Below the pieces are notes generated by a model. That model was not told where the DNA came from, did no database searches, and worked only from the letters and a program-made list of their open reading frames with translations. DNA of 64,000 nucleotides. Origin: Oscillospiraceae bacterium. GTDB taxonomy: Bacteria > Bacillota > Clostridia > Oscillospirales > CAG-272. The translations under genes were made by a program, and so were the position numbers. The DNA lies in NCBI GenBank assembly GCA_015064385.1, contig SVSI01000001.1, positions 29,637 to 93,636 of the forward strand, given 5' to 3'. The first letter of the stretch is position 1; each line of letters opens with the position of its first letter. Shown here one piece after another: positions 5,980 through 59,943 of this stretch.

Positions 5980-6090
5980 TTGGTGTCTTTTCCTTTTGAT
6001 AAAGGGTGTTTTTTATATTATACAGCAAAGTTTGTGTGTTGTCAATCAACGCATGCGTGTGTTTACAAAAAAGATGATTTTAAGCAAAAA

Positions 6091-6513
6091 ACGGAGAACC
6101 TTTGGCGTGATACTCTTAACGGAGTATCACGCCAGTTCTATTCGCCTGCGGCGAGTTCTATTGCTACGCAGTGTTATTCGGCTTACGCCGAGTGATATTT
6201 GCTTCGCAAGTTTATGGGCGAATAGAATATCACTGAAGCCGCAAGGCTTCAATATCACTTTCTTTTGGAAATATCTCGCCACAGGCGAGGTTTTTTCAAA
6301 AGAAAATATCACGCTGACTTTGGTCAGCATATCACTTAACAGACAAAAAGAAAGAGAAGACTCGTTAATATACGAATCTTCTCTTTTCTGTTGTTAGTGG
6401 GTTTGGGCTACTGCCCAACTGAATTTGTGCATACAAATGCGATGCTGGTTCTTAACAGAAACAGGTATGATTACAAATTCTCCGATAAGAACAACACCTT
6501 TCGGCTCTCCGTT
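6091..6513 (-). repeat. Terminator-nested hairpin-array element, copy A
   Basis: AAAAACGGAGA/TCTCCGTTTTT outer stem; internal AGTGATATT and AATATCACT repeats separated by short hairpins; 12-bp hairpin GGCGTGATACTC/GAGTATCACGCC. Confidence 0.8.
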
Positions 6514-6524
6514 TTTGTTTCAGC

Positions 6525-27367: not shown

Positions 27368-27406
27368 CCCGAAACTATGGGATTTTTCCGTAGTTTCGGG
27401 ATTTTT
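27368..27406. terminator. Intrinsic terminator-like hairpin
   Basis: CCCGAAACTA...TAGTTTCGGGATTTTT. Confidence 0.7.
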
Positions 27407-27413
27407 ATATTTT

Positions 27414-27756
27414 ACGGAGAAGGAGGGATTTACGAACCCAACGCGGGCGTCGTGCGGCGGTTGCTGCTCACCTCATCTGCCGCCCGCTTTTGCAAATTGC
27501 CTGCGGCAATTCGCGGGGTTCTGCATCGTGTAAATTCACTATAAAAAACAAAAGAACGAGCAGTTGCTCGTTCTTTGTTTTTTTACGGAGAAGGAGAGAT
27601 TTACGAACGTAGGCGCGGGCGTCGTGAGGTGATTGCCGTTCATCTCGTTTTCCGCCCGCTACGGCAAATTGCCTTTGGCAATTTACGGGGTTCTGCATCG
27701 TGTAAGTTCACTATAAAAAACAAAAGAACGAGCAGTTGCTCGTTCTTTGTTTTTTT
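27414..27756 (-). repeat. Two tandem ~171-172 bp repeats derived from the tRNA-Ser 3' end and its terminator
   Basis: ACGGAGAAGGAG(G/A)GATTTACGAAC at 27414 and 27585; AAAGAACGAGCAGTTGCTCGTTCTTT hairpin in each. Confidence 0.85.
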
Positions 27757-27757
27757 A

Positions 27758-27846
27758 CGGAGAAGGAGGGATTTGAACCCTCGCGCCGCTATAAACGACC
27801 TACACCCTTAGCAGGGGCGCCTCTTCGGCCTCTTGAGTACTTCTCC
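27758..27846 (-). tRNA. tRNA-Ser (GCT), no encoded CCA
   Basis: GGAGAAGTACTCAAGAGGCCGAAGAGGCGCCCCTGCTAAGGGTGTAGG...GAGGGTTCAAATCCCTCCTTCTCCG. Confidence 0.95.
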
Positions 27847-28033
27847 AAGGTTATCGTCGGTCGCAACATAAATTCTACCACATCTTTGGGCGTTTTACAA
27901 TACCTAAAAATGTTAAATTTGTGTGAACGCTCCTTTTTTATAATGTTATTGCAATTTTTGTAAAAACGTGCTATAATTATCTTTAATTAAGGTCGAATAT
28001 GTCCCCAAATGTTTTTAGAAGGAGAAAAAGCCA

Positions 28034-35405: not shown

Positions 35406-35796
35406 AAAAAAGCAGAGACCGAAATCCGGGATGTTCTTAGCAGATAAATAAGATAGGGGTATGGGCGCATCCCGATGCATTTGTAAAACAAATGCGAAAC
35501 CGGCGATAAAACAGAAGGGAGAGTCATGCGGAAGCAAAATTCCGTAAGACTCTCTCTTTTTCTGCTGTCTATGAGTGATATTCTTTGCTTTCGCAAAGAG
35601 TGATATTGCCCTTGCGGGCAGTGATATTGTTCGGTTACGCCTCACAGTGATATTCTATTCGCCTCAAAAACTCGCGAAGCGAATACCACTCGGAGTGAGC
35701 CGAATATCACTGCGTAGCAATATCACTCGCCGCAGGCGAATAGAACCGGCGTGATACTCCGATAAGAGCATCACGCCAAAAGGTCTCTGCTTTTTT
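35406..35796 (+). repeat. Terminator-nested hairpin-array element, copy B
   Basis: 15-bp outer stem AAAAAAGCAGAGACC/GGTCTCTGCTTTTTT; AGTGATATT and AATATCACT repeats around mini-hairpins; GGCGTGATACTC/GAGCATCACGCC hairpin. Confidence 0.85.
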
Positions 35797-47757: not shown

Positions 47758-50025
47758 ATGAAAAGACTGACTGCGTTACTTTTAGCGTTGATGCTGTTAC
47801 TAACCTGTTGCAGCGCTCCCGTTGAAGATCTGTTCGACGGAGCTGACTCTGATCAAAATATAAATGCGGGATACACGAACTATTCTCCGCCTGACATCGA
47901 AGACGGGGATGCGCAAGGTGATTTTTTCGGCGACATTGAGACGGAGATAGATCGACCCGAGAACGGCAAACCTACGGTGGAAGATCCCAACGAGGATAAA
48001 CCCACGGTGGAAGATCCCAACGAGGATAAACCCACGGTGGAAGATCCTAACGAGGACAAACCCACGGTGGAAGATCCTAACGAGGACAAACCCACGGTGG
48101 AAGATCCCAACGAGGACAAACCCACAGTGGAAGATCCCAATGAGGACAAACCCACAGTGGAAGATCCCAATGAGGACAAACCCACGGTGGAAGATCCTAA
48201 CGAGGACAAGCCCACGGTGGATCAGCCCAACGAGGACAAGCCCACGGTGGATCAGCCCAACGAGGACAAACCCACGGTGGATCAGCCCAACGAGGACAAA
48301 CCCACGGTGGATCAACCTAACGTGGATAAACCCACGGTGGATCAACCCGAGACACCGGAAATATCCCACGATTATAAGGCAACCGTAACTGCGCCTACCT
48401 GCAAGAGCGAGGGATATACGACCTACACCTGCTCGATATGTGGGGACTCGTACGTGACCGATCGGGTTTCAACCGTTCCGCACAATTACAAATCAACGGT
48501 AACTGCACCCACTTGTGTGAAGAGCGGTTACACCACGTACACCTGCACGGTTTGCTCTACCTCTTATACCTCAAACACGGTAGCTGCGACAGGTCACAAC
48601 TGGAAGGCGGCTACGACGTCTGCGCCCAAAACCTGCACAACCTGCGGTGCGACCGAAGGAAGTAAGCTGCCCTCGACCGATTCGTCAAGCTCTTCATCCG
48701 GTTCCTCCTCGTCAAGCTCTTCATCCGGTTCCTCTTCGTCAAGCTCCTCGTCCGGATACAGCGAGAAGCTTTACGTAAGCTACATAAACGTAGGACAGGG
48801 AGACAGCATTCTCATTAAAGTCGGTGACTGTGACATTCTTATCGACGCGGGTACGTCAAGCTACGGCTCTACCGTTTCAAGCTATCTGAAGAGTCAGGGC
48901 GTTGACGATATTGAGCTTCTGATAAATACCCACCCCGATTCTGACCATTGCGGCGGACTGACCGCGGTTCTTAACAGCTTTGTGGTCGAGCAGGTGTGGA
49001 TCTCTCCCAAAACGAGCACGACTACGGTTTACAAGAACTTTATCTCCGCGGTAAATAGCGAGGGTCTGACCGCTAAAAAGCCGACGGTGGGAACCGTTTA
49101 TAAATACGAATATCTGACACTTACCGTTCTTTATGCATCAACGGGCTCCGATTCCAACAACTCGTCTATCGTGACGATGCTTGAATACGGCAGCTACAAA
49201 TTCCTCTTTACCGGAGATGCGGGCGAAGAGGTTGAAAACAAGCTCGTAAGCTCGGGCGCAAACCTCAGCTGTGACGTTCTTAAAGTCGGACATCACGGCA
49301 GTAAGTATTCAAGCACGGCGTCGTTCCTCAGTAAAACGGGCGCTGACTACGGCGTAATTTGCGTAGGAAGCAATTCTTACGGACACCCCACGGCCGATGC
49401 GCTTAGCAGACTTTCGTCTGCGGGAATAACCGTTTACCGTACGGACAAGGACGGAAACGTAGTATTCTCCACCAACGGCGCGACCTTGACTCTGCCGGGA
49501 GGCGGAACGGTCAGCGGCGGATCCGGATCGGGCACGTCCTCTGGCGGAAGCTCGTCGGGAAGCACCTCCTCGGGCTCGTCCTCAAGCGGTTCTTCGTCCT
49601 CATCTACCGAGTATTTTATCGGTAACACCGAGACTAAAGTGTTCCATCTTCCCACCTGCGGCAATCTTCCCGCGGCATCCAAGCGTAACACGATGTATAA
49701 TTATTGGTGGATAATCAATATTGCCGGATATACGCCCTGCGGACGTTGTCTGAAGAATTATTCGGGTGGCGGCAGCGAAAGTACTACGAGCTATATTGCT
49801 AACACCGAGTCTAAAGTATATCACTTGTCCACGTGTAGTTATCTGCCTGCGGCATCCAAGCGTGAGGTAATATACAGTACTGCGGGATACACGCCTTGCG
49901 GACACTGTATAAAGAAGGCGACTTCAACGAGCGATACGTCCGGTGGAGACGTCGGAGCGGTTCAGCTCCTTTCGTACGCCTACGTATCGGTATCGTCCAA
50001 ACGCGAACTGCTTGTTGTGGTATAG
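47758..50025 (+). CDS. Lipoprotein with tandem repeats, Cys-rich repeats, ComEC-like metallo-beta-lactamase domain and two Ada-like CxxC motifs
   Basis: Lipobox LLLTCC; YINVGQGDSILIKVGDCDILIDAG, NTHPDSDHCGGL, KVGHHGSKYSS; (K/V)FHLPTCGNLP...GYTPCGRCLK x2. Confidence 0.85.
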   Translation: MKRLTALLLALMLLLTCCSAPVEDLFDGADSDQNINAGYTNYSPPDIEDGDAQGDFFGDIETEIDRPENGKPTVEDPNEDKPTVEDPNEDKPTVEDPNEDKPTVEDPNEDKPTVEDPNEDKPTVEDPNEDKPTVEDPNEDKPTVEDPNEDKPTVDQPNEDKPTVDQPNEDKPTVDQPNEDKPTVDQPNVDKPTVDQPETPEISHDYKATVTAPTCKSEGYTTYTCSICGDSYVTDRVSTVPHNYKSTVTAPTCVKSGYTTYTCTVCSTSYTSNTVAATGHNWKAATTSAPKTCTTCGATEGSKLPSTDSSSSSSGSSSSSSSSGSSSSSSSSGYSEKLYVSYINVGQGDSILIKVGDCDILIDAGTSSYGSTVSSYLKSQGVDDIELLINTHPDSDHCGGLTAVLNSFVVEQVWISPKTSTTTVYKNFISAVNSEGLTAKKPTVGTVYKYEYLTLTVLYASTGSDSNNSSIVTMLEYGSYKFLFTGDAGEEVENKLVSSGANLSCDVLKVGHHGSKYSSTASFLSKTGADYGVICVGSNSYGHPTADALSRLSSAGITVYRTDKDGNVVFSTNGATLTLPGGGTVSGGSGSGTSSGGSSSGSTSSGSSSSGSSSSSTEYFIGNTETKVFHLPTCGNLPAASKRNTMYNYWWIINIAGYTPCGRCLKNYSGGGSESTTSYIANTESKVYHLSTCSYLPAASKREVIYSTAGYTPCGHCIKKATSTSDTSGGDVGAVQLLSYAYVSVSSKRELLVVV
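47968..48352 (+). repeat. 30-bp minisatellite encoding (KPTV[ED/DQ]PNED)x12 plus a partial unit
   Basis: Perfect 30-nt periodicity, CCCACGGTGGAAGATCC(C/T)AACGAGGA(C/T)AAA, switching to GGTGGATCA(G/A)CC after eight units. Confidence 0.97.
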
Positions 50026-59731: not shown

Positions 59732-59821
59732 TTTTGTCATATCAAAATAATAAAATATTTATTGACAAAGATAAAGGCGTATGCTATAATGTAAACGGTG
59801 ACTGTTTCACCCAAACTTAAC

Positions 59822-59907
59822 GTGTTTTTTGTGACTGACGGATAAAGCGGTTTACCGCGGGGGAGCAAAGATCATAACACGTCCTACGCCGACCGTCTGG
59901 GCAGTTC
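59822..59907 (+). promoter_or_regulatory. ZTP (pfl) riboswitch upstream of purE
   Basis: GTGACTGACGGATAAAGCGGTTTACCGCGGGGGAGCA...GCCGACCGTCTGGGCA matches the pfl-motif consensus. Confidence 0.92.
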
Positions 59908-59943
59908 TTACCTTAACAGTAGGCGAGAACTGTCCTTTTTTGA
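59902..59943 (+). terminator. Riboswitch-associated intrinsic terminator
   Basis: CAGTTCT...AGAACTGTCCTTTTTT directly after the aptamer. Confidence 0.85.

What the first reader, a model, noticed from the sequence alone, without database searches (positions are those of the whole stretch)
35406..35796. Hairpin-array element, copy B: same architecture with different hairpin sequences
Copy B (plus strand) shares the 3' half closely with copy A: CTATTCGCC...AAACT(C/T)GCGAAGC(G/A)AAT...CGG...AGCCGAATA.CACTGCGTAGCAATA..ACTCGCCGCAGGCGAATAGAAC.GGCGTGATACTCCG.TAAGAG.ATCACGCC. In the 5' arm the constant AGTGATATT spacers persist while the hairpins between them differ in sequence yet still fold (CTTTGC-tttc-GCAAAG, GCCC-ttgc-GGGC versus GCTGAC/GTCAGC, GAAGCC/GGCTTC in A). 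The A-to-G change in the terminal hairpin (GAGTATCACGCC to GAGCATCACGCC) keeps pairing as G-U. Conserved structure with changing sequence suggests selection on folding.
Basis: partly seen in the sequence, partly recalled or inferred. Interest (0 to 1): 0.86.

Follow-up and report, generated by a model that had tools for sequence, protein, structure and literature searches.

The report
Mobile hairpin cassette inside transcription terminators
The folded DNA repeat is a gene-less copy of a mobile element that inserts into the loops of bacterial stop-transcription hairpins; fuller copies carry a small protein gene of a long-unexplained family plus varied passenger genes, which gives an orphan gut RNA motif (Gut-1) a likely home and purpose.

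Summary
Copy B is real. Its hairpins keep pairing while their sequence changes: 220 distinct hairpin units pair at 92.5% of outer positions, against 53% when arms are re-dealt. The array is two opposed half-arrays, each a weak match to Rfam Gut-1 RNA (42.0 and 40.2 bits, cut-off 50); better copies pass the cut-off. Copies A and B have terminal inverted repeats and sit in the loop of the upstream gene's own intrinsic terminator. A relative of one such copy has the same flanks and an intact terminator. The window genome also holds a ~973-bp copy with a promoter, a PF05635 gene (four-helix bundle, "23S rRNA intervening sequence protein") and a second gene, again inside a terminator. In the host family PF05635 occurs in 59 of 98 genomes; 87 of 106 such genes have an inverted array just upstream, against 11 downstream. 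The array's spacer tracks the protein tree: 19 changes against 62 shuffled. Best reading: a mobile gene-cassette family that targets hairpin loops, with copies A and B as non-autonomous relics. The enzyme that moves it is not identified.

The parts
35406..35420 (+). 5' arm of the host gene's intrinsic terminator (AAAAAAGCAGAGACC), followed by native loop GAAA 35421-35424
   Evidence: Pairs with 35782-35796; joined it reads GCAGAGACC-GAAA-GGTCTCTGC
35425..35781 (+). Inserted element, copy B (357 bp; ends exact to +/-2 bp)
   Evidence: Joined-terminator reconstruction; same layout as L056, whose empty site is seen in G114
35428..35444 (+). 5' terminal inverted repeat GGGATGTTCTTAGCAGA
   Evidence: Inverted copy of half of the 3' terminal hairpin; aligned with GGGTGATGTCCTTANCGGAG of other copies
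35452..35511 (+). Leader-like module (GGGGTATGGGC..GATGCATTTGTAAAACAAATGCGAAAC..GGCGATAAA); in cargo-bearing copies it precedes the cargo gene's ribosome site
   Evidence: Same module before the start codon in L017, L209 and L231
35512..35565 (+). Internal terminator-like hairpin with T-run, which may replace the terminator split by insertion
   Evidence: Fold; a terminator-like hairpin was found automatically in 12 of 21 listed matches, but not by the simple scan of copy B
35532..35632 (+). Left half-array; Rfam Gut-1 match, 42.0 bits (below the cut-off of 50)
35574..35747 (+). Hairpin array: AGTGATATT units, inversion point at CTATTCGCC (35655-35663), then AATATCACT units
   Evidence: Sequence; covariation
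35678..35748 (-). Right half-array; Rfam Gut-1 match on the minus strand, 40.2 bits (below the cut-off of 50)
35748..35777 (+). 3' terminal palindrome GGCGTGATACTCCGATAAGAGCATCACGCC (3' inverted repeat)
35782..35796 (+). 3' arm of the host terminator (GGTCTCTGCTTTTTT)
6087..6516 (-). Copy A with its terminator arms, after alaS; joined terminator CGGAGAGCC-GAAA-GGTTCTCCG

Best explanation
Copy B is a non-autonomous, gene-less member of a family of mobile gene cassettes in gut Clostridia. SHOWN by sequence: the element has terminal inverted repeats and lies in the loop of a locus-specific intrinsic terminator; an orthologous empty site exists for a sister copy; fuller members carry an inverted hairpin array (two opposed Gut-1 motifs), a promoter, a PF05635 four-helix-bundle gene and then a different cargo gene each time, often translationally coupled. 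INFERRED: the PF05635 protein binds the array hairpins as its own recognition sites and helps to move or protect the element; insertion is guided by the hairpin loop itself, in single-stranded DNA or RNA; internal terminator hairpins make the insertion harmless. The enzyme that joins DNA is not identified and may act in trans.
For: Terminator arms: among 19 full class-1 elements the element's own arms pair with mean score 28.6, against 16.1 for arms of different copies; 15 of 19 exceed the control 95th percentile. Joined loops are GAAA, AAAA, GATT and similar. Empty site: G114 matches the flank-joined L056 query at 98% over all 413 bases and reads CCCGTTGCCC-CAAA-GGGCAACGGG without the element. 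G112, G116 and 8 of 9 relatives read for the L059 host gene also end the orthologous gene with a plain terminator and no element. Multicopy: 12 element-bearing genomes hold from 1 to 33 pattern matches each, reversed-pattern control 0. Gene-bearing sister in the same genome: C7 copy with promoter, PF05635 (E = 1.9e-24) and a second gene between two terminator arms. Association: array upstream of 87 of 106 PF05635 genes, 11 downstream, 6 in shuffles; 67 of 87 arrays have exactly one inversion point, 14 expected. Spacer class follows the protein tree, 19 changes against 62.4 shuffled, 0 of 200 as low. Cargo: 67 Pfam families over 50 genes, nearly all singletons; 33 of 108 PF05635 genes end in an ATGA overlap.
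Against: No transposase or recombinase was found inside these elements. The match of spacer class to protein clade could come from linkage alone. G003 has arrays but no PF05635 hit (85% complete). 19 of 106 PF05635 genes show no such array under the test used. Target duplication of 0-2 bp cannot be resolved. A terminator-like hairpin just upstream of the array was scored in only 27 of 85 gene-bearing loci (9 in a control), so terminator-loop insertion is shown for copies with these inverted repeats and not for every subfamily.
Confidence: 0.78

Rival explanations
1. Ordinary MITE: a known DDE-type transposase in trans recognises the inverted repeats, and the preference for terminator loops and the PF05635 gene are incidental.
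For: Terminal inverted repeats, 350-400 bp gene-less copies, multicopy, precise insertion.
Against: No clear target duplication. At least six terminal-hairpin classes. PF05635 is coupled to the array across the family. No autonomous copy with a transposase was seen, but the search was not exhaustive.
Confidence: 0.2
2. REP/BIME-type element built and moved by a Y1 (HUH, RAYT) transposase that binds each hairpin and its flanking spacer.
For: Hairpin units flanked by a constant short sequence, in inverted pairs, at gene 3' ends.
Against: The window genome has no PF01797 hit, and only 1 of 4 genomes in the genus has one. The Y1 genes seen (L154, L113) lie beside other repeats.
Confidence: 0.05
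3. Expressed structured RNA (Gut-1 sRNA) or 3'-end RNA regulator; its spread is a by-product.
For: Rfam lists Gut-1 as sRNA (PMC2864571); strong RNA folding.
Against: Gut-1 hits often come as opposed pairs on both strands. The array lies between an inverted repeat and a promoter and moves with a protein gene. Gut-1 was predicted from sequence.
Confidence: 0.12
4. RNA-mediated insertion (retroelement): the PF05635 protein works with a reverse transcriptase in trans, as its relative Avd does in diversity-generating retroelements.
For: PF05635 resembles Avd (PMC10053308). Targets are hairpins of transcripts: terminators here, and rRNA tetraloops for IVS elements (PMC4990558).
Against: No reverse transcriptase in the cassettes read; a partner was not searched for genome-wide.
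Confidence: 0.25

Closest known systems
Gut-1 RNA (Rfam RF01706)
   Same: Same hairpins and GUGAAAU-like spacers; several arrays score above the curated cut-off.
   Different: Known only from human-gut environmental sequences as a predicted noncoding RNA (PMC2864571). Here it is half of an inverted array in a mobile cassette of ruminant-gut Clostridia.
rRNA intervening sequences (IVS) with S23p/PF05635
   Same: Same protein family; inverted-repeat borders; insertion where a helix had a small tetraloop (PMC4990558).
   Different: Target is intrinsic terminators rather than 23S rRNA; hairpin arrays, promoters and varied cargo genes are present.
MITEs
   Same: Short, inverted-repeat, multicopy, gene-less copies.
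   Different: Loop of a terminator as target, no clear target duplication, no parent transposase found.
REP/BIME with RAYT
   Same: Inverted hairpin units with a constant flank.
   Different: No Y1 transposase in the window genome; different flanks.
Integron gene cassettes
   Same: Varied single cargo genes joined to a folded recognition site.
   Different: Dispersed single copies with PF05635; integrase and attI/attC not tested.
Group IIC introns
   Same: Known to favour terminator hairpins (own knowledge).
   Different: Inserted in the loop and not after the stem; no intron RNA at Rfam threshold and no reverse transcriptase in the copies read.

Membership tests
Gut-1 RNA RF01706 | Score at or above the curated 50 bits | tested here: not met
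   Window copy B: 42.0 and 40.2 bits. Sister copies met it: L305 68.9, L238 66.0, L232 50.2
Gut-1 RNA RF01706 | Consensus order of hairpins and spacers, full model length | tested here: met
   Positions 1-77 of 77 in both halves, E = 4.6e-07 and 1.3e-06
IVS (rRNA intervening sequence) | Encodes PF05635/S23p | tested here: inconclusive
   Not in copies A and B; present in the C7 copy, E = 1.9e-24
IVS (rRNA intervening sequence) | Located in 23S rRNA | tested here: not met
   Copies A and B follow protein genes
IVS (rRNA intervening sequence) | Occupies a former small hairpin loop | tested here: met
   Sister copy's empty site CCCGTTGCCC-CAAA-GGGCAACGGG; reconstructed GAAA loops for A and B
IVS (rRNA intervening sequence) | Excised from the transcript by RNase III | not testable with these tools
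   Needs RNA work
MITE | Terminal inverted repeats | tested here: met
MITE | Target-site duplication | tested here: inconclusive
   0-2 bp, ambiguous
MITE | Parent element with a transposase | tested here: inconclusive
   None among the cargo-bearing copies read; not exhaustive
REP/BIME with RAYT | Y1 transposase PF01797 in the host | tested here: not met
   0 in G000
Group II intron | Intron RNA structure | tested here: not met
   No Rfam group II hit at gathering threshold in the window
Integron cassette | attC site and IntI integrase | not tested
   -

The most novel reading that the evidence does not exclude
A separate kind of mobile gene-capture system: PF05635 four-helix-bundle proteins with their own hairpin arrays direct cassettes into the loops of hairpins (terminators, tRNA terminators, rRNA tetraloops) without a classical transposase. 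rRNA IVS elements would be one branch of it and Gut-1 RNA its recognition array.
Probability: 0.4. Interest if true: 0.95.

Novelty: new variant of a known kind. Interest (0 to 1): 0.86.

Why it matters
It ties together three loose ends: an orphan gut RNA motif (Gut-1), an orphan protein family (PF05635/S23p) and rRNA intervening sequences, whose origin and function were called unclear after 25 years (PMC4990558). It suggests a gene-shuffling platform with a structural rather than a sequence target; its protein gene is present in 59 of 98 sampled genomes of one gut bacterial family. The 16 protein clade/spacer pairs make the binding hypothesis directly testable.

Tried and rejected
Y1/RAYT transposase as driver: absent from the window genome, and the Y1 genes seen lie beside other repeats. 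Loose pairing test of flanks without anchoring was uninformative because A- and T-rich tracts pair by chance; repeated with inverted-repeat anchoring. Empty site for copies A and B themselves: alaS of G001 has no element but a different downstream sequence; the G003 copy's flanks are rearranged in G001 and G002. The locus handle L056 could not be used as a search centre; solved through genome handles. Viral contigs: only 3 pattern hits, two of them (L152, L153) without the rest of the array. Literature searches found no description of such cassettes in the open library; subscription papers and bioRxiv preprints are largely not held.

Full report
OBSERVATION. The sequence is as described. Copy A lies on the minus strand at 6087-6516 and copy B at 35406-35796; they share an inverted 131-nt arm at 88%. 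B folds far better than shuffles as RNA (z = -13.2) and as DNA on the other strand (z = -10.1). The genome has about 8 copies, some at contig ends.

COVARIATION. For 220 distinct units between AGTGATATT spacers the outer pairs are standard in 92.5% of cells, against 53.0% (maximum 56.9%) when right halves are re-dealt among units of equal length. There are 74 different left arms, and all four Watson-Crick pairs occur at most positions. The commonest loops of the AGTGATATT half read T-N-N-C, which is G-N-N-A on the other strand; the opposed half should then have the opposite polarity.

ARCHITECTURE. The right half uses AATATCACT, so the array is two opposed half-arrays around CTATTCGCC. Rfam Gut-1 matches each half on opposite strands (42.0 and 40.2 bits, cut-off 50). 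In sister loci Gut-1 passes the cut-off, often with a second, opposed match. Gut-1 was described in 2010 from human-gut environmental sequences only and as a noncoding RNA (PMC2864571).

TERMINATOR TARGET. Outside the array lie terminal inverted repeats: 5' GGGTGATGTCCTTANCGGAG and 3' palindrome GGCGTGATACTCCGTTAAGAGTATCACGCC. Other copies have other terminal-hairpin classes. Outside these are two arms that pair with each other and differ at every locus. For 19 class-1 copies the own arms score 28.6 on average and mismatched arms 16.1; 15 of 19 exceed the control 95th percentile. Joining the arms restores compact terminators such as GCAGAGACC-GAAA-GGTCTCTGC for B and CGGAGAGCC-GAAA-GGTTCTCCG for A. 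A real empty site was found: the element after rpsR in L056 (genome G100) is absent from same-genus G114, which matches the joined flanks at 98% over 413 bases and reads CCCGTTGCCC-CAAA-GGGCAACGGG. G112 has a plain terminator there too. Orthologues of the L059 and L063 host genes also end in plain terminators in most relatives read. Target duplication is 0-2 bp and cannot be resolved.

GENE-BEARING COPIES. Some elements with the same ends carry genes: DUF559 (L093), DUF3885 (L203), DUF3916 (L204), a P-loop protein (L209) and others. The clearest lies in the window's own genome: L017 about 1988-2970, 973 bp between terminator arms AAAACAGACCTCA and TGAGGTCTGTTTT, holding the terminal palindrome, the array, a promoter (11 of 12 matches), a PF05635 gene (E = 1.9e-24; NCBIfam four helix bundle protein), the leader module also present in copy B, a 67-aa membrane-like protein and a terminator. 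Copy B is therefore best read as a relic without genes.

FAMILY-WIDE TEST. PF05635 occurs in 59 of 98 genomes of the family and in 0 of 14 control genomes. In 87 of 106 loci an inverted spacer array lies within 430 nt upstream, against 11 downstream and 6 in shuffles; with at least five copies of the spacer word it is 67 upstream against 1 downstream. 67 of 87 arrays have exactly one inversion point, where 14 are expected and the maximum of 1000 shuffles is 25. The spacer differs by element (AGTGATATT, AGTGATGTT, AGTGAAGTT, GATGAAATC, AGCTAAATT, AGTTATGA and others). On a tree of 79 proteins the 16 spacer classes need 19 changes (least possible 15), shuffled mean 62.4, 0 of 200 as low. Linkage alone could keep protein and spacer together, so binding is inferred and not shown. 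Classes were assigned by eye from the consensus words, and the alignment has few columns, so individual branches are uncertain while the overall clustering is not.

CARGO. Genes after PF05635 are unrelated to each other: 67 Pfam families over 50 proteins, nearly all singletons. 33 of 108 PF05635 genes end in an ATGA overlap with a possible following start codon, which suggests translational coupling.

MECHANISM. Shown: mobility (empty site, multicopy), terminator-loop placement of the inverted-repeat-bearing copies, and the standing association of array, PF05635 and cargo. Inferred: PF05635 recognises its own array; insertion is guided by the hairpin loop; internal terminators soften the damage (a terminator-like hairpin was found automatically in 12 of 21 listed matches). 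Unknown: the enzyme. The relative Avd works with a reverse transcriptase (PMC10053308), which makes a partner in trans worth testing. IVS elements carry the same protein family and replaced small tetraloops in rRNA, and a mobile origin was proposed for them (PMC4990558). The closest solved relative by sequence is 2rld (E = 1.5e-28).

VERDICT. The parts are known separately (Gut-1, PF05635, MITE-like ends). Their union into a terminator-loop cassette family was not found in the papers that could be searched.

Noticed in passing
L036, L039, L091, L122 (left of the array): Arrays that end at the terminator of an oppositely oriented tRNA gene have a T-arm-like fragment (GGTTCGAATCC type) on their other side, as if part of a tRNA gene had been duplicated or captured.
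   Followed up: partly
L187, L188, L196, L119: The same 5' inverted repeat is followed by arrays with other spacers (AGTGATGTT, GATGAAATC, TCGATATG); L119 seems to hold two arrays in one element.
   Followed up: partly
L005, L048 against window 35452-35511: The leader/promoter module is present in inverted orientation next to the array, consistent with a lost cargo gene that pointed the other way.
   Followed up: partly
L040, L147, L154: A different repeat (GTAGGGGCGAAC..GTTCGCCC..CCCCTAC type, or GTAGGGGAGGGG) occurs inside or near these elements; the Y1 transposase gene region in G001 (L154) contains such repeats.
   Followed up: no
window 47866-48405: Thirteen overlapping copies in a 30-nt tandem repeat register inside ORF 47758-50025, a repeat protein.
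   Followed up: no
window 27403-27780: Repeated 161-172 nt units next to a tRNA-Ser gene at 27757-27847, possibly decayed tRNA copies.
   Followed up: no
window 59821-59909: ZMP/ZTP riboswitch, 59.6 bits.
   Followed up: no
G000 contigs C2, C23, C26: Contigs end inside copies of this element, so copy numbers in draft genomes are undercounts.
   Followed up: no
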